Origin: Candidatus Sulfotelmatobacter sp.
Lineage (GTDB): Bacteria > Acidobacteriota > Terriglobia > Terriglobales > Acidobacteriaceae
Direction: 5' to 3'
Length of the DNA: 34,862 nt
NCBI GenBank assembly: GCA_030041215.1
Contig: JASHOH010000083.1
Location: 1-34,862 of the forward strand
The translations under genes were made by a program, and so were the position numbers. Positions 8,715 through 34,862 of the stretch are shown here, in pieces (the first letter of the stretch is position 1; every line of letters starts with the position of its first letter). The notes under the pieces are model-generated. The model saw only the letters and a program-made list of their open reading frames with translations. It made no database searches and had not been told where the DNA came from.

Positions 8715-9461
8715 ATGAAGCAAGCATATTTTCGATTCTATGCGGAGCTGGACGATTTGCTCTCGCCACCCAGAAAAGGCCAGAGTCTCCCGTACGCTTT
8801 TTTTGAAGCCCCATCAGTGAAGGATGTAATCGAGGCACTGGGCGTGCCGCACACCGAGGTTGATCTCATCCTGGTGAACAGCGAGCTCGGAGCTTTTTCC
8901 TACCAGCTGCGAGACGGAGACAGAATCAGCGTGTATCCAGTTTTTCGCCGGCTCAAGATTAGTCCGCTCACACATCTCCAGCCGCCATCGGAAGGCGAAA
9001 TGCGCTTCGTGCTTGATACGCATCTTGGCAAGCTGGCGGCCTATCTACGAATGTTGGGTTTCGACAGTTTGTATCGCAACGACTGCCAGGACGAGGAGCT
9101 TGCACAAATCTCCGCCAATCAGCATCGGATTCTGTTGAGCAGGGATCGCGGGTTGCTGAAGCGCAGCATGGTGACGCGCGGATATCTCGTATGCGCGGCA
9201 CATCCACGCGACCAGCTTATTGAAGTTGTGCGCCGTTTTGATCTGTCCGGCTCGATCGCCCCATTTTGGCGCTGTTTCCACTGCAACGCCCATCTGCGAC
9301 CGGTTGCGAAAGAGATAGTCAATGACCGCCTTCTCCCGCACACGAGGCAGCATTACGATGAATTTCACATTTGCCCGGAGTGCGAGCGTGTTTATTGGAA
9401 AGGATCGCACTATCAACGCATGAAAACGCTTATCGAGCGTATATTTCATGCAATGAACTAA
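8715..9461 (+). CDS. Mut7-C ubiquitin-fold / PIN-type RNase domain protein
   Basis: A 248-aa two-domain protein. Residues 1-80 form a ubiquitin-like beta-grasp of the Mut7-C-associated type (YFRFYAELDDLL, then LVNSELGAFSYQLRDGDRIS). Residues 96-245 form a Mut7-C RNase domain of the PIN superfamily with acidic residues D101 (FVLDTHLGKLA) and D144 (LLSRDRGLL), followed by a zinc ribbon with CFHC (187/190) and CPEC (220/223). The family is widespread in bacteria and predicted to cleave RNA, but its target is unknown. The ribosome binding site before the ATG at 8715 is weak. It stands alone and is convergent with the universal stress gene cluster. Confidence 0.88.
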   Translation: MKQAYFRFYAELDDLLSPPRKGQSLPYAFFEAPSVKDVIEALGVPHTEVDLILVNSELGAFSYQLRDGDRISVYPVFRRLKISPLTHLQPPSEGEMRFVLDTHLGKLAAYLRMLGFDSLYRNDCQDEELAQISANQHRILLSRDRGLLKRSMVTRGYLVCAAHPRDQLIEVVRRFDLSGSIAPFWRCFHCNAHLRPVAKEIVNDRLLPHTRQHYDEFHICPECERVYWKGSHYQRMKTLIERIFHAMN

Positions 9462-22313: not shown

Positions 22314-24104
22314 ATGAACCTCACCAGGATCGACTGGTCGATACTCGGGCTGTATATCGTTTTCGTGCTGGGCATCGGCTTGGTAGTGAAGCGCTACACG
22401 AAGACGAGCACTGATTTCTTCCTCGCCGGCCGTTCCGTCCCTGCCTGGGTCTGCGGACTGGCTTTCATCTCCGCCAATCTCGGCGCACAGGAAGTGATCG
22501 GCATGGCGGCGTCCGGCGCGAAGTATGGAATCGCTACCAGCCATTTCTACTGGATCGGTGCAATTCCAGCGATGGTGTTTATTGGCATCTTTATGATGCC
22601 GTTCTATTACGGTTCGTCCGCGCGCTCCGTGCCGGAATATCTAAGGCTGCGTTTCGACGAGAAGACCCGGGGACTGAACGCAATCGCATTCGCCACCATG
22701 ACAGTATTCTCTTCGGGCATTTCGATGTACGCCATGGCCAAGCTGATCGAGGCACTGCACGTTTTCGACGCGCCACTAAAGACTCTGGGACTGTCGCCCG
22801 GGTTGACGTTTCATCTCAGTATCGCCATCTCCGCGGTCATCGTTCTCGGTTATATTCTTCTGGGCGGGCTAACGAGCGCAATCTACAACGAAGTCCTGCA
22901 ATTCTTTCTCATCGTTGCGGGATTTTTGCCTCTCGTGTTACTTGGACTGAAGGACGTTGGGGGATGGAGCGGGCTTAAGGCGCGGCTACCCCCCGGTTAT
23001 ACACACTCCTGGCAAGGACTGGCCCACGCACACAGCAATCGACTCGGGGTTGAGTGGTTTGGGCTGGTGATGGGGCTGGGCTTTGTGTTGTCGTTCGGCT
23101 ACTGGTGCACGGATTTTCTGGTGGTACAACGTGCAATGGCGGCGGAGTCCATGAGCGCCGCACGCAGAACCCCGCTGATCGCCGCTCTACCCAAGATGTT
23201 CTTTCCTTTTCTCGTCATCTTTCCTGGACTCATTGCCGTGGCGCTGCCGACGACTGCGACGCCCAGCGGCGCACGCTCGCTGCCGGTGGCCGAGCTGCAG
23301 GTTGGCAAGGGCCTGATTCCGGTGAAAGTGGATTATGCTACGGGACAGGTAAAGCTGGACAGGAACGGCGATCCTGTCCTCGACTACGACCTGGCTGTGC
23401 CGAACATGCTGCTCCATTATTTTCCTACGGGGATGCTGGGGCTGGGCCTGACGGCGCTGCTGGCCAGCTTCATGTCAGGCATGGCGGGCAACGTCACCGC
23501 GTTCAACACCGTCTGGACTTATGACATTTATCAGGCGTACATCCGCAAGCACGCCAGCGATGAGCACTATCTGCGAATGGGCCGGCTGGCAAGCGTCTTC
23601 GGGGTGGGGCTTTCCATAGCTGCGGCCTATGCGACGACGCGGTTCAACAATATCATGGACTTTCTGCAACTCGTGTTCGCCTTCGTGAATGCTCCACTGT
23701 TCGCGACATTCTTGTTGGGAATGTTTTGGAAGCGCGCTACCGGACACGGTGCGTTCGCTGGCCTGCTCTCCGGGACAGCAGCAGCCGCCCTCCATCACGG
23801 CCTCACTCTTTCTGAAGGCGCCGTGACCGGCATCAAGGGCGGCTGGCTCGCTACTGTGCATTTGTATCCCAGCGAAATGGCCCAGAACTTTTGGACAGCC
23901 ATTTGGGCGTGGACGGCATGTTTTGTGGTTACGATTGCGGTGAGCCTGATGACAACGCCCCGCAACGATAGCGATCTGGTTGGGCTAGTGTATTCGTTGA
24001 CAAAACGCGCTAGCGACGAGCATGTGCCGTGGTTCCGGCAGCCGGTTTGGCTGGGCGCCATCGCGCTCATGCTGGCGCTGCTGCTCAACATTGTTTTCTG
24101 GTAG
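22314..24104 (+). CDS. sodium:solute symporter (SSS/SLC5 family), probably galactose
   Basis: A 596-aa inner-membrane transporter with 13-14 hydrophobic helices. It starts MNLTRIDWSILGLYIVFVLG, and the SSS signatures include TSTDFFLAGRSVPAWVCGLA, NLGAQEVIG and GYWCTDFLVVQRAMAA. A loop of about 65 residues (330-395, with TGQVKLDRNGDPVLDYDL) sits between helices. It resembles the SGLT-type sugar branch. The operon continues with a 2-TM protein, galK and galT, so galactose is the best-supported substrate; this is inference from context. The ATG at 22314 lacks a good ribosome binding site; a TTG at 22293 is the other option. The promoter region is shared with the DUF932 debris. Confidence 0.88.
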   Translation: MNLTRIDWSILGLYIVFVLGIGLVVKRYTKTSTDFFLAGRSVPAWVCGLAFISANLGAQEVIGMAASGAKYGIATSHFYWIGAIPAMVFIGIFMMPFYYGSSARSVPEYLRLRFDEKTRGLNAIAFATMTVFSSGISMYAMAKLIEALHVFDAPLKTLGLSPGLTFHLSIAISAVIVLGYILLGGLTSAIYNEVLQFFLIVAGFLPLVLLGLKDVGGWSGLKARLPPGYTHSWQGLAHAHSNRLGVEWFGLVMGLGFVLSFGYWCTDFLVVQRAMAAESMSAARRTPLIAALPKMFFPFLVIFPGLIAVALPTTATPSGARSLPVAELQVGKGLIPVKVDYATGQVKLDRNGDPVLDYDLAVPNMLLHYFPTGMLGLGLTALLASFMSGMAGNVTAFNTVWTYDIYQAYIRKHASDEHYLRMGRLASVFGVGLSIAAAYATTRFNNIMDFLQLVFAFVNAPLFATFLLGMFWKRATGHGAFAGLLSGTAAAALHHGLTLSEGAVTGIKGGWLATVHLYPSEMAQNFWTAIWAWTACFVVTIAVSLMTTPRNDSDLVGLVYSLTKRASDEHVPWFRQPVWLGAIALMLALLLNIVFW

Positions 24105-24112
24105 AGACAGCT

Positions 24113-24349
24113 ATGCGACTGGATATTCGTCTTCCCATCGGCCTGCTGTTCGCGGCGCTCGGCTTACTCTTGGGGACATTTGGCCTGTTTGGTGACCCAT
24201 CTATTTACCAGCGCTCACTCGGTGTCAACATCAACCTGGGGTGGGGAGCCGTGCTCTTGATGTTCGGTGTAATCATGCTCACCTTTGGATACCGGGGGGA
24301 GAGAACCAGACGCCCGGATCAGAGTCCACAGGTCGTTGCGAGACCGTGA
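24113..24349 (+). CDS. small two-helix membrane protein in the galactose operon
   Basis: A 78-aa protein with two transmembrane helices (LPIGLLFAALGLLLGTFGLF and LGWGAVLLMFGVIMLTFGY) joined by a short loop with DPSIYQRSLG, and a charged C-terminal tail. It begins eight bases after the symporter stop, and its own stop directly abuts the galK ATG, so it is firmly embedded in the operon. It may be an accessory subunit of the symporter or a folding/stability factor; there is no direct evidence. Not a known transporter family by itself. Confidence 0.75.
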   Translation: MRLDIRLPIGLLFAALGLLLGTFGLFGDPSIYQRSLGVNINLGWGAVLLMFGVIMLTFGYRGERTRRPDQSPQVVARP

Positions 24350-25540
24350 ATGCCAACCATTGCTCCCAACCTTGATTGCATTGCCGGCTCCCTGGCCGAG
24401 CGATTTCAGAAGTTGTACGGGACGTCGCCCCACATTTTTCTGGCGCCCGGTCGCGTCAATCTGATCGGCGAACACACGGACTACAACGATGGCTTTGTGA
24501 TGCCGGCCGCGATCGACTTTTATATATGGGTCGGCGTGGCAAAGCGTCCGGATCGTATCTTGAACGTATACTCTGAGCACTTTGCTGAGATGGTGCAGTT
24601 GTCCCTGGCGGCATTGGCAGGTCCGCCGCGAAAACACTGGAGCGATTATGTCCGCGGCGTCGCCGCCGTTCTTCAAGCTGCGGGCCGCACCCTATCGGGG
24701 GCAAATCTCATGATTTACAGTCAAGTGCCGCTCGGTGCAGGACTGAGTTCTTCCGCTTCACTCGAAGTTTCAACCGCGCTGGCTCTGATGGCAATATCTG
24801 AGGTGGAGTTTTCGCCGCTGGAGTTAGTGAAGATATGTCAGCGGGCGGAACATGAGTACGCTGGCACCCGGTGCGGCATCATGGACCAATTTATTGCTGT
24901 TTGCGGCCGCGCCGACTGCGCTTTAATGTTGGACTGCAGGTCTCTCGAGCATCAGATATTGGCGCTCCCTGACGACGTTTGCATCGTCATTTGCAATAGC
25001 ATGGTGAAGCACGAGCTCGCGGCAGGAGAATATAACCGCCGGCGCGCCGATTGTGAGTCCGGCGTGAAGATTTTGCAACGTCATCTACCAAACATGAGGG
25101 CGCTACGGGATGCGACCCTGGCGGACCTGCAGCAGAACCAACCTCTGCTGCCACAGCGGATTTGGCGGCGATGCCATCACGTGGTCAGCGAAAACCAGCG
25201 CGTGCTTGGCGCCGCGGAGGCGCTGCGCTCTGGAGATCTGGCTGGGTTTGGCCGGCTGATGTACGAATCTCATGCCAGCCTGCGCGACGATTACGAAGTC
25301 AGTTGTCGAGAACTCGATCTTCTGGTCGAATTGGCCTCGACATGTGAGGGCATTTATGGCGCACGCATGACGGGCGCAGGTTTTGGCGGATGCACGGTGA
25401 ATCTGATTCGTTCGGAGGCGGTCGACAGTTTTCAATCTCGCGTCACGGAAAGCTACAAAAAGGCGACGGGAAAAACTCTTGAAGTCTATGTGTGTGCGGC
25501 AGCGCAAGGCGCGAGAGCCTGGCAACCATTGGTCGGATGA
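24350..25540 (+). CDS. galK: galactokinase
   Basis: A 396-aa GHMP-family kinase that phosphorylates alpha-D-galactose to galactose-1-phosphate. The galactokinase signature [13 protein letters not shown] is at 34-46; the ATP loop [14 protein letters not shown] is at 127-140; the catalytic Asp is D179 in GIMDQF; the third GHMP motif [11 protein letters not shown] is near the C-terminus. The length is normal. Its ATG follows the stop of the small membrane gene without a gap, and its own stop overlaps the galT start (ATGA at 25537-25540), giving tight coupling. The pathway continues with galT. galE and the phosphoglucomutase are not in the window. Confidence 0.96.
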
Positions 25541-26607
25541 CGCTTGAAACCCTCACCCTCGAAACACTGAATCGCTCGCCCCACCGGCGCTTGAATCCGC
25601 TCACTGGAGAGTGGGTGCTGGTCTCGCCGGAGCGAGCGGAGCGCCCCTGGCGCGGGCAAGTTGAGAGAAGCGCTAGTGCCAAGCCGGTCGCTTACGATCC
25701 CAACTGCTATCTATGCCCTGGAAACGAGCGGGCCAGAGGCGTGCGCAATCCAAATTACAGCACGACCTTTGTGTTTACGAACGATTTCTCGGCACTCACG
25801 CCGCAGGTCGCCGACGCAAGATTGGATTATTGCGAGAGAGGGCTGCTGGTCGCGGAACGCGAGGGCGGCACTTGCAGAGTGGTGTGTTTCTCGCCGCGCC
25901 ATGACCTTACGCTGGCGCAGATGAGCGTCGAGGAGATCACAGCAGTCGTCGATCTCTTGGCTGCTGAGTCCGGTCAGCTCGGGTCATTGCCTGACGTCAA
26001 TTACGTGCAGATCTTCGAAAACCGTGGCGAGATGATGGGCTGCAGCAATCCTCATCCTCATGGCCAGATCTGGGCAAATCACACCATTCCCAATGAACCC
26101 CGCAAAGAGCAGGACTTGCAACTGGCCTACACGCAGAAGCACAAGTCCTGCTTGCTATGCGATTATCTGGAGTTGGAGGGGACAGCGAAGGAGCGAATTG
26201 TCTGCGAGAACGCTCATTTCACCGCTCTGGTGCCTTTTTGGGCGGTTTGGCCGTTTGAAGTACTGCTGGCCTCGAAGAATCACGCGCGCGATCTCTTATC
26301 TCTGGATCAGCTGGCGAGAAGCGATCTGGCTGACATTCTTAAACGTCTCACCACGCGTTACGACAATCTGTTCGAGATTTCATTTCCTTACTCGATGGGC
26401 TTCCACCAGGCTCCCACAGGTGGCGAGACGCATGAGGAATGGCATTTCCATGCCCACTTTTATCCTCCGCTGCTACGTTCCGCAACCGTTCGCAAGTTCA
26501 TGGTGGGGTACGAAATGCTGGCTGCCCCACAGCGGGACATCACCGCCGAATGGGCAGCCCGCACGCTGAGACAGGTCAGCGAGACTCATTATTCTCTCCG
26601 GCGTTAA
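25537..26607 (+). CDS. galT: galactose-1-phosphate uridylyltransferase
   Basis: A 356-aa HIT-superfamily enzyme that exchanges UDP-glucose and galactose-1-phosphate to UDP-galactose and glucose-1-phosphate. The active-site motif [10 protein letters not shown] places H173 and the nucleophile H175. Metal-site residues include CYLC (57/60), and the C-terminal half has [24 protein letters not shown], the second histidine group (quoted here only by its ends: GFHQAP and HFHAHF). The ATG at 25537 overlaps the galK stop by four bases. The first ten residues are repetitive ([10 protein letters not shown]), perhaps a later extension. It is the last gene of the galactose operon; a 190-base gap follows. 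Confidence 0.95.
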
Positions 26608-26696
26608 CTTTCAACATCTCCGGCCGATCCGGCTGGAACATCGTCTTCAAAGCTGAAATCCGGTGCCTCGCCGGAGCGAGTTCGCGATTCTTTCGT

Positions 26697-26733
26697 TCAC
26701 ATACATGCCCGATTTTTGGATATTGTATATAAG
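26697..26733 (+). promoter_or_regulatory. promoter/operator of the metallopeptidase gene, copy 1 of a shared element
   Basis: ATATTGTATATAA at 26720-26732, preceded by TCACATACAT at 26697-26706, is repeated almost identically before the glycyl-radical activase gene. TATAAG (26728-26733) could act as the -10 box, so a factor binding the 13-mer would cover it. The TTGTATA core resembles GntR-family operators. Confidence 0.5.
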
Positions 26734-26796
26734 ATCTAGTCGTCGCCATTCTCCAGCTCTCACTTCGCTTTCGCCGGATGGCGAATCGGAGGTTAT

Positions 26797-29046
26797 GTGA
26801 AGAAAACCATCGGCGATCTATTGCGGTGCGGAATTTTTGTTTTGTTTGGGCTTCTTCTATATTCCGGGCTGTCCTACGCGGAAGAGGGCGTGGAGCCGGG
26901 GCATCCTATTGGCAGGGTCTCGATCAATGGAGACCTGATCGTCATGGAGTTGAACGACGGTGCACTTGGCAAGGCCAATCTGTTCGACCTCGTCGGTCAC
27001 ACGCTGCACTTTGTTCCAGAGGGTTCCCGTTATCGCGTGGAGAGCGAAGCCTTGCAGTGGGATCAGGACTTCGGCAATGAACTCAGCGGCGCGGAGGTTA
27101 CCCTCCATCAATTCGCGTTCCCTTTTTCCGGCAAGCCCTGGAGCTCGTTCCAGGTGGGGACAACCGGATCGATCAGCTTTGGCAGGCCGGAAAACGACAG
27201 CCGCCCCGGACCTCGCGGACAAAGCGATGGAGGAGTGTCGATTGGCCGATTCGACCAGTTGGCAGAAGCGGCCGGCACACTAATAAGTAGCGCCCCGGCG
27301 ATCTGCGTGTTCTTCAAGCCGCGCACGTCCGGACCTCATTATGTGAAGGAGCTGCCGGATCGTGTGATCATCACCTGGGATCTCACGGAGCCCTTCGGGA
27401 ACATTCAAGACTTCACCTGGTTCAAAACAGTCAATCGCTTTCAGGCTGTGCTGCATCGCGACGGTTCGATTGAGATGTCATATAAGGAACTAGCCGCGAA
27501 AGATGCCATCGTGGGCGTGTATCCCGTGCTCTCGGGCGCGGAAAAGCCACTGGCAACGATCACCGCCGATCCGCATCCGCTGCTTCCGCCGCATCTCGAT
27601 GTGCAAAAAGTCAAGCTTTCGATTGTTGATGCCGTTGTGCTGAGAGTCACGTTTGAAACCCGCGGGCCGGTGCCGTCCGAAGGAGACCGCGCCATGGAAG
27701 GGATCGGATTTCGGGTTAGCTTTGGCGCTCCGAATCCCCGTCCCGATGGCTCACATCCGATTGCGGCTTGGATCGTTGAAGGTATGGCACCGCCAGAGAA
27801 TCCAAGTGGCAGTCGCGCCAGATACTTTGTGTTTGGCTCGGGTGTCTTCCTGAAGGCGAGGATAAGTGGGAACTCGATCACTCTTGAGGGAGTCCTGCCT
27901 GGCGCGCTGCGTGGGGCCGAACAGGTTGCAGTCTCCGCCGAGGTTATTAGCGCGGGGAGTTCCGGCAAGCCAGTCGAGCGGCTGGCACCTCATGTCGTTC
28001 GGTTGACCGGAATTCATAGTCCTGAAGTTCACTTTTCTTCCCTGACGCGTAGGGATGGCCCGTTTACAGTGGCGTACGAATCGTTTCACTACCTGGCTTT
28101 GCCCAAACCTCAGGATCTGTCTTGCACTGTCATCAACGGGCTCGGCGACAAATTCGATTTCCTTGCGTACTACTCCGACTTCCGCATCGATAACCAAGAG
28201 GCGGGGACTCCGAGTGATGGCCCTTTGGGGGGCAATGTGACCGGGATCGGGCAAACACAGCACGATCTTGAGAGCTACTGTAGCCAGGGCAGGTTTCAGT
28301 GGGAATACGTGCAGCCTGTATACGTCAACTCGAACCAAATGCAGGAGCGGCCTCCCGACGGAGCACCCGTCGGGACTGATCGCGATATAACCTTTTACTC
28401 CCGCCAACTCTCGGAGAGTTCACCGGACAGAAAGATTCGTCCTTACAACTACGCGATGTCGCAAATTGGGCACGAGATGGGCCACCGCTGGTCTGCGTTT
28501 GTCTCGGCGAAAGTCAATGGTGAAACCATTTCCCTTGGCCCCGTACATTGGGCGCGAGGGTTGCAGGCGCCGGCTGCGTTTCCTTATCAGCGGCCCACTG
28601 AGGCATCCGCCATGGGAGGTGGCGTCTGGCAGGATAACTTTGATGGAACGTATACGCAGCTGGACGACGACTACTACGTGCCAGCGACAGGCTATTCCCA
28701 TCTTGACCTGTACTTGATGGGCTTGATCTCTGCCGCGGAGGTGCCGGATTTCTTTATCCTGAAAAACCTCGTGCCCGTCGGGAAGGACGGAAACGGACAC
28801 CCGATATTCAAGGCAGACCGAACTAAAGTGACGATTCAAGACGTGATTGCCGCAGAGGGACCGCGGTTCCCTGATGTGGATCACGCGCAAAGGAAATTCA
28901 ACACCGGGATCGTGGTCGTGGTCGTGCACGGGAAAAATCCGAGCCGCGAACTTATCGAGCGAGCCAATGGCATTTGCCGGCAGTGGATCGATTACTGGGA
29001 GACGACAACCGGACACCGCGCGTCTATGACAGCGAATCCACAGTGA
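26797..29046 (+). CDS. secreted zinc metallopeptidase-like protein (HExGH)
   Basis: A 749-aa exported protein. Residues 1-28 form a signal peptide (GIFVLFGLLLYSGLSYA, then EE). Residues 30-430 are beta-rich with no identified domain, probably for substrate or cell-surface binding. The C-terminal part holds the zinc-binding helix SQIGHEMGHRWSAFV with H559, E560 and H563; a third ligand may lie in GYSHLDLYLMGLI. This layout matches large uncharacterised bacterial peptidases with HExxH and a YSxLDLYLMG segment, which I cannot tie to a named MEROPS family. The start is the GTG at 26797 with GGAGG four bases upstream. It shares an upstream element with the activase/hypD operon, suggesting joint control and a role in releasing peptides. 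Confidence 0.8.
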   Translation: MKKTIGDLLRCGIFVLFGLLLYSGLSYAEEGVEPGHPIGRVSINGDLIVMELNDGALGKANLFDLVGHTLHFVPEGSRYRVESEALQWDQDFGNELSGAEVTLHQFAFPFSGKPWSSFQVGTTGSISFGRPENDSRPGPRGQSDGGVSIGRFDQLAEAAGTLISSAPAICVFFKPRTSGPHYVKELPDRVIITWDLTEPFGNIQDFTWFKTVNRFQAVLHRDGSIEMSYKELAAKDAIVGVYPVLSGAEKPLATITADPHPLLPPHLDVQKVKLSIVDAVVLRVTFETRGPVPSEGDRAMEGIGFRVSFGAPNPRPDGSHPIAAWIVEGMAPPENPSGSRARYFVFGSGVFLKARISGNSITLEGVLPGALRGAEQVAVSAEVISAGSSGKPVERLAPHVVRLTGIHSPEVHFSSLTRRDGPFTVAYESFHYLALPKPQDLSCTVINGLGDKFDFLAYYSDFRIDNQEAGTPSDGPLGGNVTGIGQTQHDLESYCSQGRFQWEYVQPVYVNSNQMQERPPDGAPVGTDRDITFYSRQLSESSPDRKIRPYNYAMSQIGHEMGHRWSAFVSAKVNGETISLGPVHWARGLQAPAAFPYQRPTEASAMGGGVWQDNFDGTYTQLDDDYYVPATGYSHLDLYLMGLISAAEVPDFFILKNLVPVGKDGNGHPIFKADRTKVTIQDVIAAEGPRFPDVDHAQRKFNTGIVVVVVHGKNPSRELIERANGICRQWIDYWETTTGHRASMTANPQ

Positions 29047-29056
29047 GCGTTCTGCT

Positions 29057-30226
29057 TTAGATCAGAACGACCTCTTGCTGTATGCGGCCGGTTACTTCCG
29101 CCGAGCCCTTGCGCACAAGCATGTTGACTTCACTCCGCAGACCGAACTCGGGCAGGTAGATTCCGGGCTCGATGGAAAAACAAGTATTGGGGATCAGCTC
29201 CCGATCATCGTGCGACTCGAAGTTGTCCATATTGGCGCCGTTCCCATGGACCTCGGTGCCAATCGAATGCCCCACACGGTTGTTAAGATACTGCCCGTAT
29301 CCCGCAGCTGCGAGCACGTCGCGCGAAGCCTTATCCACCTCCCAGCCACAGAGTTTTTTTCCGCCTCCAACATCAGTGCGGACCTTTTCAATGGCCGCGT
29401 CCCGTGATCGCCGAACGATTTCGAAGATCTCGCGCACACGATCAGGCAGTGAGTGTCCGACAAAACCTGTCCAGCTGATGTCATAGTAGACAGCGCCCGG
29501 CGTGTTCTTCTTTCCCCAGACATCCAGCAGAACGAAGTCGCCTTCGCCAATTCGGGCGCAATGTTCTGAGGAGGGCAGGTAATGCGGATTTCCGCTGTTT
29601 TGATTTACCGCGACGATGGGCGGCCCATCCGCGACCAAATAGTCGCGCCGAAAAGCGTCGACCAGCCACTGCTGAATCTCGAACTCGGACGTACCACCGT
29701 TCCGCGCTCGTCGCCCAATTTCCGGAAATACGGCGGCCATGATGGAGTCGATGGAATCGCGGGCCGCGAAGTGCGAGCGTATCTGCTCTTCTGTCCAGGT
29801 GGCTTCGAATTGTGCCACCAGGTTCGCGGAGCTGACGACGTTCTTGCCGAAACTGCGGATCAGATCCACCGTGCCCGCGTCCACGACGGACACGGTGAAT
29901 ATCATGTTGTTGGGAGAAAACTGCATGGCAACGTCGCGCACTCCGGAAAGCATTTCGCGCAGCCGCTCGACAAGCTCCTGCCACGCGGCGTAGACACGCT
30001 TGTTGCCCGGCAACGAATCCAGGTGGAAAGGTTCGATTCGGTGCAGCAGTTTGACCGGTTCCCCGTGGGCGGGAATCAAGTAAAACCAGCGCCTGGAAAC
30101 CATCAGCGATTCTGGCAAGCCCAAAATCCGGTAGGCGATCGCGTCGCGGTGCTGGTGATCGCAAAAGAGCCACGCGTCGATAGAGCGGTCGCACAGGGCA
30201 GCTTGAATATCTTCAATTTTGGTCAT
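29057..30226 (-). CDS. M24-family peptidase (Xaa-Pro dipeptidase/aminopeptidase P type)
   Basis: A 389-aa cytoplasmic metallopeptidase with a creatinase N-terminal domain (about 1-135) and a pita-bread M24 catalytic domain. All five metal ligands are present: D235 (LLDVW), D249 (YYDISW), H320 (VGHSIGTEVHG), E353 (SIEPGIY) and E366 (RSEVNML). Enzymes of this type cleave bonds before or after proline, and prolidases also accept hydroxyproline. It begins at ATG 30226 and is divergent from the activase/hypD operon, with 130 bases between starts. Placed between a secreted peptidase and a hydroxyproline dehydratase, it probably frees imino acids from short imported peptides. The exact specificity is not determined. 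Confidence 0.88.
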   Translation of the reverse strand: MTKIEDIQAALCDRSIDAWLFCDHQHRDAIAYRILGLPESLMVSRRWFYLIPAHGEPVKLLHRIEPFHLDSLPGNKRVYAAWQELVERLREMLSGVRDVAMQFSPNNMIFTVSVVDAGTVDLIRSFGKNVVSSANLVAQFEATWTEEQIRSHFAARDSIDSIMAAVFPEIGRRARNGGTSEFEIQQWLVDAFRRDYLVADGPPIVAVNQNSGNPHYLPSSEHCARIGEGDFVLLDVWGKKNTPGAVYYDISWTGFVGHSLPDRVREIFEIVRRSRDAAIEKVRTDVGGGKKLCGWEVDKASRDVLAAAGYGQYLNNRVGHSIGTEVHGNGANMDNFESHDDRELIPNTCFSIEPGIYLPEFGLRSEVNMLVRKGSAEVTGRIQQEVVLI

Positions 30227-30297
30227 CGTCTCTCGCCGACCCGCCGCGTGAATCGGACGGGAATGTCATTGGGACGAGCATGAGCCGGAGACTGCTG

Positions 30298-30340
30298 TCA
30301 CATACATCGGAGTCATTCATGGCATATTGTATATAATATG
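30298..30340 (+). promoter_or_regulatory. promoter/operator of the activase-hypD operon, copy 2 of the shared element
   Basis: TCACATACAT (30298-30307) is followed after 16 bases by ATATTGTATATAA (30324-30336). Here the 13-mer lies in a 7-bp inverted repeat, GCATATT (30322-30328) and AATATGC (30335-30341), around GTATAT. TATAAT (30332-30337) is a perfect -10 box, 20 bases before the activase ATG, so a bound repressor would block polymerase. Confidence 0.55.
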
Positions 30341-30356
30341 CAGCGGGGCAAAGAAA

Positions 30357-31310
30357 ATGGGCAGCCTCGAGCAAACCGCTCACAGCCATCCCAGTCTGCG
30401 ACCCGGGGGGACAGTCACCGGTCTGGTCTTTAATATTATGCGTTTCTCGCTCCACGATGGGCCAGGCATTCGCACCACTGTATTTCTGAAGGGTTGTCCT
30501 TTGCACTGCTGGTGGTGCCACAATCCCGAGAGTCAACTCCCGGAAACAGAACTCATTTATTTTGAGGGGCGCTGCATCCGTTGCGGCAACTGCGTCCGTG
30601 CATGCCCAAACGGCGCGCTTCGTTTACACCAGCGGCTCATCCACGATTCTGATCTCTGCCAGCGTTGCGGAGCATGCGTGAATGCCTGCCCGGCAGCTGC
30701 GCGTCAACTCGCGGGTCGCTGGATGACGGTGTCTGAAGTCGTAGCGGAGGTCTTAAAGGACCAAATCTTTTTTGACGAATCCGGTGGCGGTATTACAGTC
30801 TCCGGCGGTGAACCGCTGATGCAGGCAGGGTTTGTGGAAGCTCTGCTAGACGCCTGCCGGGCCCGAGGGATTCGAGCCGTCCTCGACACCTGCGGCTTTG
30901 CAAATTCCAAAGTCATTCACCGAATCAGCGCGAAGGTAGATCTCTTCCTCTACGATCTGAAACTGATGGACTGTGAAAGACACCGGGACTTCACCGGCGT
31001 GAGGAACGACTTAATTTTGCGGAACCTGAAAATGTTGGCTGAACGTAAGAGCGCGGTTGTCGTCCGCATTCCCATAATTCCGGGAGTGAATGACGACAGC
31101 GACAACATAGAGGCTTTCTCCGAGTTTCTATCTCCCTTGGGTCTTCGAGAAATCGATCTTCTCCCTTTTCACCGGATCGGAAGCGACAAGTACCGCAGGT
31201 TGCATTTGTCCTACGGGATGGGGGGAGTGGACCCACCCACCGCGGAGCAGATGGAAAGCATCGCACTGCGCCTGAGGCGGGACGGGTTTAGTGTGCGAAT
31301 TGGAGGCTAA
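30357..31310 (+). CDS. glycyl-radical enzyme activase
   Basis: A 317-aa radical SAM protein of the PflA/HypE-like group that installs the glycyl radical on its partner enzyme. The SAM cluster motif GCPLHCWWCHNPE gives C47, C51 and C54. Two ferredoxin-type clusters follow, CIRCGNCVRACP (C73-C83) and CQRCGACVNACP (C101-C111), as in activases of dehydratase-type glycyl-radical enzymes. SGGEPLMQ is the SAM-binding GGE motif. The start is the ATG at 30357; an earlier TTG in the same frame lies inside the promoter and is dismissed. The partner gene begins two bases after its stop codon, making a two-gene operon. Its product is oxygen-sensitive, so activity implies anoxic microsites. Confidence 0.93.
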   Translation: MGSLEQTAHSHPSLRPGGTVTGLVFNIMRFSLHDGPGIRTTVFLKGCPLHCWWCHNPESQLPETELIYFEGRCIRCGNCVRACPNGALRLHQRLIHDSDLCQRCGACVNACPAAARQLAGRWMTVSEVVAEVLKDQIFFDESGGGITVSGGEPLMQAGFVEALLDACRARGIRAVLDTCGFANSKVIHRISAKVDLFLYDLKLMDCERHRDFTGVRNDLILRNLKMLAERKSAVVVRIPIIPGVNDDSDNIEAFSEFLSPLGLREIDLLPFHRIGSDKYRRLHLSYGMGGVDPPTAEQMESIALRLRRDGFSVRIGG

Positions 31311-31311
31311 T

Positions 31312-33699
31312 ATGAACGAACGCGTGGCCAGACTGAGACAAGCTACACTCGAAACAAAACCTCGGCTTTCCATCGAACGCGCATTGCTTCTCAGCGAATT
31401 CTATCGCCAGGATAAGACTGTCTCGGTTCCCATCCGCCGGGCTCGTGCCTTTCAATACCTGATGGAGAACAAAGAGATCTACATTGGAAAGGGCGAACTA
31501 ATCGTTGGCGAGCGTGGCCCCGCGCCCAAGGCAGCTCCCACTTTCCCGGAACTGTGCTGCCATAGCCTCGAGGACTTTGACATCCTGAATTCGCGCGAAA
31601 AGATCGCCTATTCCGTGGATGAGCGCGCCCGACAAGCGCAGAAGGACGAGGTCATTCCGTACTGGCGTGGCCGCTCGATGCGCGATCTCATTTTCGCGGA
31701 GATGACCCCGGAGTGGAAGACCGCATACGAGGCTGGCATCTTCACCGAGTTTATGGAACAACGTGCCCCCGGGCACACGGTGTTAGGGGATGTGATCTAT
31801 CGAAATGGCTTGCTGGATCTGAAAACCGATATTGAGTCTGCTTTGCGGCAACTCGACTTTTTCAACGATCCCGAGGCGTCTGCAAAACGAGATGAACTGC
31901 GGGCCATGGCGATCGCCGCCGACGCCGTAATCCGCTTTGCCGAACGCCATGCGGAAAAAGCGGAGGAACTGGCTCGTGTAGAAAATCAGCCCGACCGCCA
32001 AGCGGAGTTACAGAAGATCGCCGAGGTTTGCCGTCACGTGCCCGCACACGCTCCGCGCGACTTTTGGGAAGCGTTGCAGGCTTACTGGTTCGTTCATCTA
32101 GGCGTAGTGACCGAGCTGAACACGTGGGATTCCTTCTGTCCGGGGCGCTTCGATCAGCATCTTTATCCTTTCTATCAGAAAGGAATGGAAGAGGGCCTGT
32201 TGACCCGGGACAATGCCAAGGAGCTGCTCGAATGCTTGTGGGTCAAGTTCAACAATCAGCCCGCTCCCCCGAAGGTCGGGGTGACGGCGGCGGAAAGTGG
32301 TACTTACACGGATTTCGCGAATATTAACAATGGCGGTCTGAGGCGTGACGGGTCGGACGGGGTGAATGACGTCACCTATCTGATTCTGGAGGTCGTTGAT
32401 GAAATGCACTTGTTGCAGCCCTCCTCGAACCTGCAACTGAGCAGGAAGGACCCGGATCCGTTTCTGAAGCGTGGGCTGGAGATCGTACGCCAGGGCTGGG
32501 GCCAACCGTCGATCTTTAACGCGGACATGGTCGTTGAAGAGTTGTTAAGGCAGGGAAAGTCGGTGGAGGATGCACGGTGCGGCGGAACCTCGGGCTGCGT
32601 GGAAACGGGTGCCTTTGGAAAAGAAGCCTATATCCTTACAGGATACTTCAATCTCCCCAAGGTGCTTGAGATCACACTGAACAACGGAGTGGACCCACGC
32701 ACCGGGAAGAAGATCGGAATCGAGACTGGGGATGCTCGCACTTTTTCTTCCTACGAGCAACTGTTTGCAGCTTTCCGCGAGCAGCTCCACTACTTTGTCG
32801 ATATCAAGGTGCGCGGCAACAATGTCATTGAGCGGCTATATGCAGACTATATGCCGGCCCCGTTCCTCTCGCTGCTCGTGGATGACTGTATCGCAAAGGG
32901 CAAGGACTACAACAACGGCGGCCCGCGTTACAACACTACATACATCATGGGCGTAGCGCCCGCGACGTGCACTGACAGTCTTGCCGCCATAAAGTACCAC
33001 GTGTTCGACCGCAAGACCTTACCCATGGACGAGTTGCTGGAAGCGCTGGCCCACAACTTCGAGGGTCATGAAAAGTTGCGCTTGGTATTGTGGAACAAGA
33101 CGCCGAAGTTCGGAAATGATGATGACTTTGCGGATGCAATTCTCATAGATGTGTTCAACATCTTTTTCGACGACATAGATGGGCGGCGAAATACCAAGGG
33201 CGGATACTACCGGGTAAATTATCTTTCGACGACCTGCCACGTGTATTTTGGTTCGATGACCGGAGCTACACCGGACGGACGCCGCGCCTGGGAGCCCCTT
33301 TCCGACGGCATCTCGCCGGTTCAGGGCGCGGATCGCAACGGGCCCACCGCAGTCATCAAGTCCGCGGCCAAGATGGATCATGCCCGTACCGGAGGAACGC
33401 TGCTTAACCAGAAATTCACCCCGCAGTTGTTAAAAGGAGATGCCGGACTGGACAAAGTGGCTCAACTGGTCCGCTCCTACTTCCGCCTGGGTGGACATCA
33501 CATTCAGTTCAATGTGGTCACTGCGGCCACCTTGCGCGCCGCGCAGGCGGATCCCGAGAAGTACCGCGATCTGATCGTGCGAGTCGCCGGTTATAGCGAT
33601 TACTTCTGTGATTTAACCCGTGCTTTGCAGGACGAAATCATTGCGCGTACTGAGCATGAGGCCTTCGCACCTGCCATACCGGAGACAACCGCGGTCTGA
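31312..33699 (+). CDS. hypD: trans-4-hydroxy-L-proline dehydratase (glycyl-radical enzyme)
   Basis: A 795-aa glycyl-radical enzyme. The radical loop VRVAGYSDYF puts the radical on G760, and the thiyl cysteine is C429 in GGTSGCVETGAFGKEAY with E431 beside it. Relative to Clostridioides difficile HypD numbering as I recall it, all key residues fit a constant offset of five: H155, D273, S329, F335, C429, E431, T640, G760. Further segments (CLWVKFNNQPAPPKVGVTAA, YFRLGGHHIQFNVV) are also as in HypD. It removes water from trans-4-hydroxy-L-proline, giving (S)-1-pyrroline-5-carboxylate, which ProC reduces to proline; proC is not in the window. GGAGG is five bases before the ATG at 31312. It follows its activase directly. 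Other glycyl-radical dehydratases are less likely. Confidence 0.92.
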   Translation: MNERVARLRQATLETKPRLSIERALLLSEFYRQDKTVSVPIRRARAFQYLMENKEIYIGKGELIVGERGPAPKAAPTFPELCCHSLEDFDILNSREKIAYSVDERARQAQKDEVIPYWRGRSMRDLIFAEMTPEWKTAYEAGIFTEFMEQRAPGHTVLGDVIYRNGLLDLKTDIESALRQLDFFNDPEASAKRDELRAMAIAADAVIRFAERHAEKAEELARVENQPDRQAELQKIAEVCRHVPAHAPRDFWEALQAYWFVHLGVVTELNTWDSFCPGRFDQHLYPFYQKGMEEGLLTRDNAKELLECLWVKFNNQPAPPKVGVTAAESGTYTDFANINNGGLRRDGSDGVNDVTYLILEVVDEMHLLQPSSNLQLSRKDPDPFLKRGLEIVRQGWGQPSIFNADMVVEELLRQGKSVEDARCGGTSGCVETGAFGKEAYILTGYFNLPKVLEITLNNGVDPRTGKKIGIETGDARTFSSYEQLFAAFREQLHYFVDIKVRGNNVIERLYADYMPAPFLSLLVDDCIAKGKDYNNGGPRYNTTYIMGVAPATCTDSLAAIKYHVFDRKTLPMDELLEALAHNFEGHEKLRLVLWNKTPKFGNDDDFADAILIDVFNIFFDDIDGRRNTKGGYYRVNYLSTTCHVYFGSMTGATPDGRRAWEPLSDGISPVQGADRNGPTAVIKSAAKMDHARTGGTLLNQKFTPQLLKGDAGLDKVAQLVRSYFRLGGHHIQFNVVTAATLRAAQADPEKYRDLIVRVAGYSDYFCDLTRALQDEIIARTEHEAFAPAIPETTAV

Positions 33700-33843
33700 G
33701 TGAACTCGTTCGCAATCAGTGTTGAACGACAATGAACACTTGCCCGAGACTTTTCTGCTGGCTGAATCGCCGCCGAGTGCGGACTCACGCGAACACTTCG
33801 ACGTGGTATCTGGCAGCATTCCGTGGTTCCAGGAGAAACGAGT

Positions 33844-34862
33844 GTGAATAGGAAGAGATCAATCTTGCTGGCTGTTGTTACTTGCTGCCTCATCTTCAGT
33901 GTCACATCTCCCGCCCAGAACAACCTCGCAATGACGCCCCCGATGGGCTGGAACAGCTGGAATCACTTCGCTGAGCGCATCGATGACAAAACGGTTCGCG
34001 CACAGGCCGATGCCATGGTGTCAAGCGGATTGAAGGACGCCGGATACGTCTACATCAATATCGATGACACTTGGGAAGGACAGCGTGATGCCAGTGGGAA
34101 CATTCACCCCAATGAAAAGTTTCCCGACATGAAAGCCTTGGCCGATTATGTCCACGGCAAGGGCCTCAAGCTCGGGATCTACTCATCCCCAGCCGCAAAG
34201 ACCTGTGCGGGTTATGAAGGCAGTCTGGGACACGAGAGGCAGGACGCGCAGACCTACGCGCAGTGGGGCATTGATTACTTGAAATATGACTGGTGTCAAT
34301 CGACCGGCAGCCTTGAAGAAATGAAAACCGCATATACGAAGATGCACGAGGCACTGAAAAAGACCGGACGACCGATTGTTCTCAGCCTTTGTGAATACGG
34401 CTGGAACAAGGTCTGGGAGTGGGGTCCCGCCGTCGGCGGCAACCTGTGGCGCACGACCGGCGACATCAGCGACCAATACTGGGTGATGGCGGAGATCGGC
34501 TTCAATCAGAATGGCCTGGAAAAATTTGCCGGCCCCGGTCACTGGAATGATCCCGACATGCTGGAAGTTGGAAACGGCGGCATGAATGAAGATGAATACC
34601 GCACTCACATGAGCCTTTGGGCAATACTGGCCGCCCCTCTCATTGCAGGAAACGACCTCGCCAAAATGACTCCCTACACGGTCGAAATGCTGACCAATCG
34701 CGAAGTCATTGCTGTGGACCAGGATCCGCTCGGCAAACAGGGCTTTCGGGTAGCGCAGGAGGGACCGTTCGAGGTTTGGATGAAGCCCATGGCCGACGGT
34801 ACCAAGGTCGCAGGTTTGTTCAACCGGCAGCGTACGATCGAATCAATGACGGTCAACTTCTC
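33844..34862 (+). CDS. secreted GH27 alpha-galactosidase, cut by the window end
   Basis: The first 339 codons of an exported glycoside hydrolase family 27 enzyme, open to the window end. A signal peptide (RKRSILLAVVTCCLIFSV, ending about TSPAQ) precedes the (beta/alpha)8 barrel. TPPMGWNSWNHF is the classic GH27 opening; the nucleophile is D149 in LKYDWC; the acid/base Asp lies in HWNDPDML (236-238); CEYGWNKVWEWG and AVDQDPLGKQG complete the pattern. It releases terminal alpha-linked galactose, which the symporter, galK and galT upstream could use. It starts at GTG 33844 with AGGAG eight bases upstream and lies 144 bases after hypD in the same direction, so it may belong to that transcription unit. 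Confidence 0.95.
   Translation, partial: MNRKRSILLAVVTCCLIFSVTSPAQNNLAMTPPMGWNSWNHFAERIDDKTVRAQADAMVSSGLKDAGYVYINIDDTWEGQRDASGNIHPNEKFPDMKALADYVHGKGLKLGIYSSPAAKTCAGYEGSLGHERQDAQTYAQWGIDYLKYDWCQSTGSLEEMKTAYTKMHEALKKTGRPIVLSLCEYGWNKVWEWGPAVGGNLWRTTGDISDQYWVMAEIGFNQNGLEKFAGPGHWNDPDMLEVGNGGMNEDEYRTHMSLWAILAAPLIAGNDLAKMTPYTVEMLTNREVIAVDQDPLGKQGFRVAQEGPFEVWMKPMADGTKVAGLFNRQRTIESMTVNF

What the first reader, a model, noticed from the sequence alone, without database searches (positions are those of the whole stretch)
22314..34862. Candidate locus for eating hydroxyproline-rich galactosylated glycoproteins
Seen: galactose symporter, galK, galT, secreted HExGH peptidase, M24 Xaa-Pro-type peptidase, activase, HypD and a secreted GH27 alpha-galactosidase lie in one 12.5-kb block. 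Known: plant extensins and related proteins are rich in trans-4-hydroxyproline, extensin serines carry single alpha-linked galactose, and HypD turns free hydroxyproline into 1-pyrroline-5-carboxylate. Inference: the block strips alpha-galactose, digests the protein core, frees imino acids and feeds both galactose and hydroxyproline into central metabolism. A combined sugar-plus-hydroxyproline module of this kind is not one I know as described. Collagen is an alternative source, but its galactose is beta-linked.
Basis: partly seen in the sequence, partly recalled or inferred. Interest (0 to 1): 0.78.

Follow-up and report, generated by a model that had tools for sequence, protein, structure and literature searches.

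The report
Hydroxyproline-peptide cassette beside galactose operon
A soil bacterium's DNA carries a small gene set that most likely digests proteins rich in hydroxyproline, possibly plant cell-wall glycoproteins, sitting next to what looks like a separate galactose-eating operon; in some related bacteria the same genes and control signal are joined by enzymes that remove plant-type sugars.

Summary
The named genes are present; GH27 runs off the contig end. The block reads best as two modules.

(1) HExGH protein, M24 peptidase, activase and HypD form a hydroxyproline-peptide cassette. Close relatives have M24 beside hypD in 3, and HExGH in 1, of 80 hypD loci. A motif, ATATTGTATNYA, precedes HExGH and activase-hypD and occurs nowhere else in the 5.03-Mb genome. 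It occurs 14 times in 255 kb of hydroxyproline loci, 0 in 308 kb of control DNA; in segments fetched after the pattern was fixed, 4 in 54 kb (P 0.0005). Relatives' loci add a GntR/FCD regulator, S9 peptidases, a permease, the aerobic hydroxyproline pathway and, in some, GH127, GH51 or GH27, suggesting plant glycoprotein as food.

(2) Symporter-galK-galT-GH27 is contiguous in a congener without detected hypD and carries no motif: probably an independent operon enclosing the cassette.

The listings I saw show no such combination. Nearest precedent: the Streptomyces HypR regulon. Transcription, peptidase activity and regulator binding are untested.

The parts
22314..24104 (+). SSF-family symporter, first gene of the galactose operon
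   Evidence: TIGR00813 over cut-off; best PDB relative 2xq2, a sodium/sugar cotransporter; 66-77% relatives in other genus genomes, beside galK in G418, G427 and G443
24350..25540 (+). galactokinase galK
   Evidence: TIGR00131 381 bits, over cut-off
25537..26607 (+). galactose-1-phosphate uridylyltransferase galT; start overlaps the galK stop by 4 bases (read)
   Evidence: TIGR00209 474 bits, over cut-off
26720..26735 (+). shared operator-like motif ATATTGTATATAAGAT upstream of the HExGH gene
   Evidence: one of two ATATTGTATNYA sites found in the 5.03-Mb genome
26797..29046 (+). 749-aa protein with HEMGH motif, presumed secreted metallopeptidase
   Evidence: no Pfam/NCBIfam match; hydrophobic N-terminus by eye; 74% relative between M24 and activase-hypD in L066
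29057..30226 (-). M24 peptidase of Xaa-Pro dipeptidase type, no signal peptide seen by eye
   Evidence: PF00557; best PDB 5xev Xaa-Pro dipeptidase, 203 bits; 71-82% relatives near hypD in L065, L066, L072
30287..30302 (+). weak CRP/FNR-like box GGAGACTGCTGTCACA, 2 mismatches to TGTGA-N6-TCACA
   Evidence: 6 of 8 activase-hypD promoters have 0-1 mismatch; the window's has 2, no better than the best sites before galK and GH27 here
30322..30341 (+). near-perfect palindrome GCATATTGTATATAATATGC holding the shared operator-like motif
30357..31310 (+). radical SAM activase of HypD
   Evidence: NF043069 best model, 388 bits, below its 425 cut-off; TIGR02494 over cut-off
31312..33699 (+). trans-4-hydroxy-L-proline dehydratase HypD
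   Evidence: NF043068 1330 bits over 1100; PDB 6vxc 1115 bits, mapped active-site residues kept
33823..34862 (+). GH27 (alpha-galactosidase type) with signal-like N-terminus by eye, cut by the contig end
   Evidence: PF16499; best PDB alpha-galactosidases 6f4c and 1uas; contig end

Best explanation
The right half of the block (HExGH, M24, activase, HypD) is this genome's part of a hydroxyproline-peptide regulon. A GntR/FCD protein, whose orthologue sits elsewhere in the genome beside an amino-acid permease, an S9-like peptidase and an outer-membrane beta-barrel protein, probably binds the ATATTGTATNYA motif before HExGH and activase-hypD and lets go when hydroxyproline is present. The HExGH protein and S9 peptidases would cut the protein core outside the cell, the M24 enzyme would split Xaa-Pro/Hyp dipeptides inside, and HypD with its activase would turn hydroxyproline into P5C without oxygen, which P5C dehydrogenase takes to glutamate. 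The food is most likely plant hydroxyproline-rich glycoprotein. The galactose genes and GH27 are probably an older alpha-galactoside operon in which the cassette now lies; its GH27 may still help. Shown: genes, motif sites, neighbourhoods. Inferred: the reactions, the repressor-motif pairing, the substrate and the insertion.
For: HypD assignment. Close M24 in 3 and HExGH in 1 of 80 hypD loci, many cut short. In G398, GH127a-M24-HExGH run in one direction behind one motif site and directly before activase-hypD. In G412, epimerase and activase-hypD diverge from a gap with two motif sites. Motif: both genome-wide sites are in the block; 14 in 255,089 bp of hydroxyproline segments, 0 in 308,181 bp control, 0 in 78,553 bp of galactose loci, shuffle mean 0.01; in the four segments fetched after the pattern was fixed, 4 in 53,842 bp (P 0.0005). 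GntR orthologue at 80% beside permease (76%), S9-like and outer-membrane genes. M24 3 against 0, permease 4 against 0, epimerase 6 against 0 in hydroxyproline versus control segments with own-genome hits left out. P5C dehydrogenase 724 bits, over cut-off. G443 SSF-galK-galT-GH27, no hypD detected.
Against: HExGH and hypD lie together in one relative only; G249, G291, G203 and G330 have 47-62% HExGH relatives with no hypD on the fetched stretch. Glycosidase enrichment is not significant when corrected (4 against 1, P 0.13; the uncorrected 9 against 1, P 0.005, used queries taken from those very loci). The own genome has no GH127 and no close aerobic oxidase (best 27%). The exact motif is absent from the activase promoters of L064, L065, L066, L129 and L069 (degenerate forms by eye in the first four) and from all of L166 (the own GntR contig), L184 and L185. 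HExGH fold prediction failed (pLDDT 36.6) and the first His of HExxH is Gln or Arg in 9 of 29 aligned sequences, so peptidase activity is not secure.
Confidence: 0.66

Rival explanations
1. One functional module: symporter, galK, galT and GH27 serve the same glycoprotein as HypD, stripping and using alpha-galactose of extensin serines or of arabinogalactan proteins.
For: All genes but M24 are on one strand, and GH27 starts 123 bp after hypD; G397 has a 67% GH27 next to a GH51-type gene on the 28-kb contig that also holds hypD; L076 has a 59% GH27 about 3 kb upstream of the activase, and L070 and L075 have 30-31% GH27 relatives within 6 kb of hypD.
Against: galK, galT and SSF in 0 of 18 hydroxyproline segments outside the window; over the 80 hypD loci only a partial 47% galK in L123 and 23-26% SSF in L112 and L114; no motif before SSF, galK or GH27; SSF-galK-galT-GH27 in G443 and GH27-galK-galT in G441, no hypD detected in either, though G441 is only 82% complete; restriction-modification genes lie between GH27 and the activase in L076. 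A 7-sequence GH27 tree does not resolve which context the window GH27 came from.
Confidence: 0.2
2. The hydroxyproline comes from collagen or another animal protein, as proposed for the Streptomyces HypR regulon.
For: A GntR/FCD regulon joining hydroxyproline use and putative collagen-degrading enzymes is described in Streptomyces (PMC6608401, abstract and passages). Corrected glycosidase enrichment is not significant.
Against: GH127-type and GH51-type genes inside some relatives' loci, one GH127 with the motif 21 bp upstream; two characterised GH146 enzymes act on arabinose linked to hydroxyproline (PMC10850190, passages); several record labels read bog, fen or palsa.
Confidence: 0.18
3. Chance neighbours: HypD and its activase arrived by transfer with no functional tie to HExGH and M24.
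For: HypD over cut-off is patchy: 66 of 396 phylum genomes and 5 of 45 genus genomes. HExGH relatives occur without hypD nearby.
Against: Both genome-wide motif sites precede HExGH and activase-hypD; M24 recurs at 71-82% near hypD in three relatives in different orders.
Confidence: 0.08

Closest known systems
HypR regulon of Streptomyces coelicolor (PMC6608401; abstract and passages read)
   Same: GntR/FCD (FadR-subfamily) repressor of hydroxyproline use together with putative protein-degrading enzymes
   Different: Collagen is the proposed source; the motif is CTNTGC(A/C)ATGTCAC rather than ATATTGTATNYA; I saw no glycyl-radical HypD and no arabinofuranosidase in the passages read
HypR regulons of Proteobacteria (PMC5343134; passages read)
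   Different: There 'hypD' names an enzyme of that aerobic route (a deaminase, recalled), not the glycyl-radical dehydratase; no peptidases or glycosidases in the passages read
C. difficile HypD (PDB 6vxc; PMC7077986, passages read)
   Same: Same enzyme family, with all mapped active-site residues
   Different: No plant link: 'plant' and 'extensin' do not occur in the main text
Bifidobacterium and Xanthomonas HypBA systems (PMC10850190 passages read; PMC7263609 and PMC6085000 search listing only)
   Same: Beta-L-arabinofuranosidases acting on hydroxyproline-rich glycoproteins
   Different: Sugar removal and use; I saw no hydroxyproline catabolism in what I read
Latescibacteria single-cell genomes (PMC4454575; passages read)
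   Same: In-silico proposal of extensin degradation with GH127 and peptidases
   Different: No HypD, regulon or gene cluster in the passages read

Membership tests
trans-4-hydroxy-L-proline dehydratase (HypD) | Curated family score over cut-off | tested here: met
   1330 bits against 1100
trans-4-hydroxy-L-proline dehydratase (HypD) | HypD residues D278, S334, D339, F340, Y450, T645 and the CXE motif | tested here: met
   Hand mapping on the 6vxc alignment; residues from PMC7077986
trans-4-hydroxy-L-proline dehydratase (HypD) | Dedicated activase adjacent | tested here: inconclusive
   A glycyl-radical activase is adjacent (TIGR02494 over cut-off); the HypD-specific NF043069 is the best model but 388 bits is below its 425 cut-off
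trans-4-hydroxy-L-proline dehydratase (HypD) | Converts hydroxyproline to P5C | not testable with these tools
   needs an enzyme assay
GntR/FCD hydroxyproline regulon (HypR-like) | GntR plus FCD domains in the regulator | tested here: met
   L065 regulator PF00392 and PF07729; own-genome orthologue 80% identical over residues 3-233, its domains not scanned separately
GntR/FCD hydroxyproline regulon (HypR-like) | Shared operator before hydroxyproline genes | tested here: met
   14 sites in 18 segments, 2 in the window, 0 in control; out-of-sample 4 against 0
GntR/FCD hydroxyproline regulon (HypR-like) | Regulator binds that operator | not testable with these tools
   needs gel shift or footprint; the motif differs from the Streptomyces one
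Leloir galactose operon | galK and galT with a transporter, conserved in relatives | tested here: met
   SSF-galK-galT on one stretch in G443 and G427
Plant hydroxyproline-rich glycoprotein degradation system | Beta-L-arabinofuranosidase (PF07944) present | tested here: not met
   0 PF07944 matches in the own genome; present in relatives' loci G398, G404, G203
Galactose-specific SGLT symporter | vSGLT sugar-contact residues kept | tested here: inconclusive
   E88 and N260 (recalled positions) align by eye with Y and D
HExxH zinc peptidase | HExxH and zincin fold | tested here: inconclusive
   HEMGH present; first His is Q in 7 and R in 2 of 29 aligned sequences; fold prediction failed

The most novel reading that the evidence does not exclude
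Soil and peat Acidobacteriota have a dedicated, GntR-controlled regulon for eating plant hydroxyproline-rich glycoproteins. It joins beta- and alpha-L-arabinofuranosidases, alpha-galactosidase, prolyl peptidases and an outer-membrane receptor to two hydroxyproline routes, one aerobic through epimerase and oxidase and one anaerobic through HypD, with a CRP/FNR-like box that favours the HypD branch under some condition such as low oxygen. The window genome holds a reduced, HypD-only version. (Odds lowered from 0.5 after the corrected glycosidase count.)
Probability: 0.45. Interest if true: 0.75.

Novelty: new variant of a known kind. Interest (0 to 1): 0.58.

Why it matters
Nitrogen-bearing biopolymers of plants are said to be dominated by hydroxyproline-rich glycoproteins (PMC5648890, passages), yet the listings I saw show no described bacterial route from both their sugars and their protein core to central metabolism. 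A motif-defined regulon names the genes to test, proposes a role for HypD in soil, and makes three uncharacterised families (HExGH, the 800-aa u1346 family, DUF5695) candidates for glycoprotein breakdown.

Tried and rejected
Rejected: a single combined sugar-plus-hydroxyproline operon in this genome. Chance adjacency of HExGH and hypD. Led nowhere: a 7-sequence GH27 tree (unresolved); HExGH fold prediction from 2 sequences (mean pLDDT 36.6, so no fold search was made); phmmer of HExGH against solved structures (nothing at E up to 5); Rfam (nothing at gathering score); tRNAs (none).

Corrected on re-check: the glycosidase enrichment (9 against 1, P 0.005) used queries taken from the same loci. 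Leaving out hits in each query's own genome gives 4 against 1, P 0.13 (this also drops a GH127 in another locus of G398). I lowered the best-explanation confidence from 0.68 to 0.66 and the novel reading from 0.5 to 0.45, and raised the collagen rival from 0.15 to 0.18 and the chance-neighbours rival from 0.07 to 0.08.

Limits. The motif was first noticed in the window and shaped with relatives' sites seen; L184, L185, L243 and L244 and the controls were fetched later. The 18 hydroxyproline segments are 17 from relatives and one (L166) from the own genome. The 18 control segments were picked for weak GntR or oxidase hits, or from the same contig as a GntR locus, before their content was known; L199 turned out to hold an S9 gene, part of a DHDPS gene and DUF885, and L203 an S9 gene and a GH127; all 18 stayed in the counts. 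Three genomes with hydroxyproline segments (G401, G412, G445) have no control segment. Same-genome loci met through two handles (L246 with L167; L247 with L066 and L171) were counted once. Literature: one search listed 20 of 24 papers, 15 of 80; two searches found 0 papers.
Full report
Observation. The gene list is right. HMM searches confirm the SSF symporter, galK, galT, M24, a glycyl-radical activase, HypD and GH27. The 749-aa protein at 26797-29046 has no Pfam or NCBIfam match and no solved relative at E up to 5; it has a hydrophobic N-terminus by eye and HEMGH at 559-563. HypD scores 1330 bits against a cut-off of 1100, its best solved relative is the HypD of 6vxc (1115 bits), and the 13 residues from the passages of PMC7077986 that I mapped by hand are all kept. 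The activase's HypD-specific model scores below its cut-off (388 against 425). The window is a whole contig, so GH27 is cut off.

Hydroxyproline cassette. HypD is patchy: 66 of 396 sampled phylum genomes over cut-off and 5 of 45 genus genomes. The six nearest, at 83-90% identity, are Acidobacteriota records by their titles. M24 lies near activase-hypD at 71-82% in L065, L066 and L072, and L066 also has HExGH at 74%: 3 and 1 of 80 loci, many of them cut short. L065 adds an amino-acid permease, an S9 peptidase and a GntR/FCD regulator; L066 adds S9, GntR, two Pfam-confirmed GH127-type genes and a third that clusters with one of them.

Wider set in relatives. The GntR protein led to further loci. 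In G397 one 28-kb contig holds an S9 gene, an unknown 797-aa protein, a GH27 67% identical to the window's, an arabinofuranosidase (PF06964), GntR, two beta-propeller-type proteins, aldehyde dehydrogenase, DHDPS-type, flavoprotein and DAO-type genes, an epimerase match in two pieces, the permease, S9, GntR, M24, activase and hypD. Proline-racemase-family genes confirmed by Pfam lie in G398 and G396, with similar genes in G399, G404, G411 and G412; DAO and DHDPS accompany them in all of these but G412, where only the epimerase was on the stretch. This matches the known aerobic hydroxyproline route (PMC5343134, passages). The own genome has the GntR orthologue (80%) beside an outer-membrane protein, an S9-like peptidase and a permease, but no close DAO (best 27%) and no GH127. 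It has a P5C dehydrogenase over cut-off. ProC and the epimerase were not searched in the own genome.

Shared motif. I saw the motif before HExGH and before the activase in the sequence (then 14 and 17). ATATTGTATNYA occurs twice in the 5.03-Mb genome, both here; the reversed pattern 0 times. An earlier, slightly different pattern gave the same 2 sites but its reversed control also gave 2. The shorter ATATTGTAT occurs 5 times, 2 of them here; the 3-kb stretches around the other 3 show no module gene. CATATTGTATCCATAA is exact at 5 places in relatives, at permease or epimerase promoters. Over 18 segments outside the window (255,089 bp) the motif occurs 14 times. Against the gene maps these lie before the permease and/or epimerase (5), activase-hypD (4), outer-membrane proteins (2), GH127 (1), GntR (1) and an unknown 643-aa gene after hypD (1). 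Outer-membrane genes of this kind are also common in control DNA (7 segments), so those two are weaker. There are 0 sites in 18 control segments (308,181 bp), 0 in galactose loci (78,553 bp), and shuffles average 0.01. Because the pattern was shaped on some of these loci, the fair test is the four segments fetched afterwards: 4 sites in 53,842 bp against 0 in control, P 0.0005; all four sites are in two of the four. Against: the exact core is missing from 5 activase promoters (L064, L065, L066, L129, L069); four have degenerate forms by eye, L069 none.

Second box. A CRP-like palindrome TGTGA-N6-TCACA with 0-1 mismatch lies before activase-hypD in 6 of 8 promoters tested; the rate in random control stretches is 0.1%. 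L072 has 3 mismatches. The window has 2, a level reached in 3.9% of control stretches and also before galK and GH27 here, so the window's own box is only suggestive. None of 13 other promoters tested has it with 0-1 mismatch. Which protein would bind is unknown.

Plant source. The first count, 9 glycosidase genes (GH127, GH51, GH27) against 1 in control, was biased because most queries came from those loci; with own-genome hits left out it is 4 against 1, P 0.13. What remains is qualitative: in G398 a GH127-type gene carries the motif 21 bp upstream and is followed by M24 and HExGH in the same direction. That protein is nearest 5opj, which I recall as BT0349, a GH146 enzyme. Two other GH146 enzymes are reported to act on arabinose linked to hydroxyproline (PMC10850190, passages); BT0349 itself is tied to pectic arabinan there. 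So this is support, not proof.

Galactose half. SSF, galK and galT are absent from all 18 segments; over the 80 hypD loci there is only a partial galK (47%, L123) and two SSF relatives at 23-26%. In the genus, G443 has SSF-galK-galT-GH27 in a row (GH27 61%) and G441 GH27-galK-galT; no hypD was detected in either, G441 being 82% complete. The simplest reading is that the cassette came to lie between galT and GH27 of an older alpha-galactoside operon. The direction of events is inferred, and the 7-sequence GH27 tree does not settle it. GH27 may still assist, since G397 and L076 also have one near hypD.

Novelty. In the listings returned by searches I saw no report joining HypD or hydroxyproline catabolism to plant-glycoprotein glycosidases in one bacterial regulon. 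The nearest are the Streptomyces HypR regulon (PMC6608401) and the Latescibacteria proposal (PMC4454575). Most subscription papers are not held. I therefore call it a new variant of a known kind.

Noticed in passing
window 26797-29046 and L034-L063: HExGH relatives occur in 67 of 396 phylum genomes; the first motif His is Gln in 7 and Arg in 2 of 29 aligned sequences while E560, W565, S604 and G608 are invariant, so it may not be a classic zincin.
   Followed up: partly
L072:1349-3823, L167:1135-3525, L168:10019-10411, L243:17737-19899: A family of about 800 aa, without Pfam match in the two members scanned, recurs in 4 hydroxyproline segments and 0 of 18 controls.
   Followed up: no
L067:3494-6331, L072:6044-8833, L243:4634-7279: DUF5695-type proteins lie next to activase-hypD in three genomes (Pfam in L067; by similarity in L072 and L243).
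   Followed up: no
L085:5299-12364: Desulfosporosinus sp. FKB has two HypD-like enzymes and two activases in a row, one HypD-like only 36% identical to the window's.
   Followed up: no
L069:9148-9995: The activase matches in two frames beside an intact hypD, so this copy may be broken or carry a sequencing error; only noted.
   Followed up: no
window 24114-24347: Small open frame of about 78 aa, hydrophobic by eye, between the symporter and galK.
   Followed up: no
window 8715-9461: Mut7-C RNase domain with an N-terminal ubiquitin-like domain.
   Followed up: no
L147:2476-11657: In G330 a GH127-type gene lies 5 kb from an HExGH relative on a 12-kb contig without hypD.
   Followed up: partly
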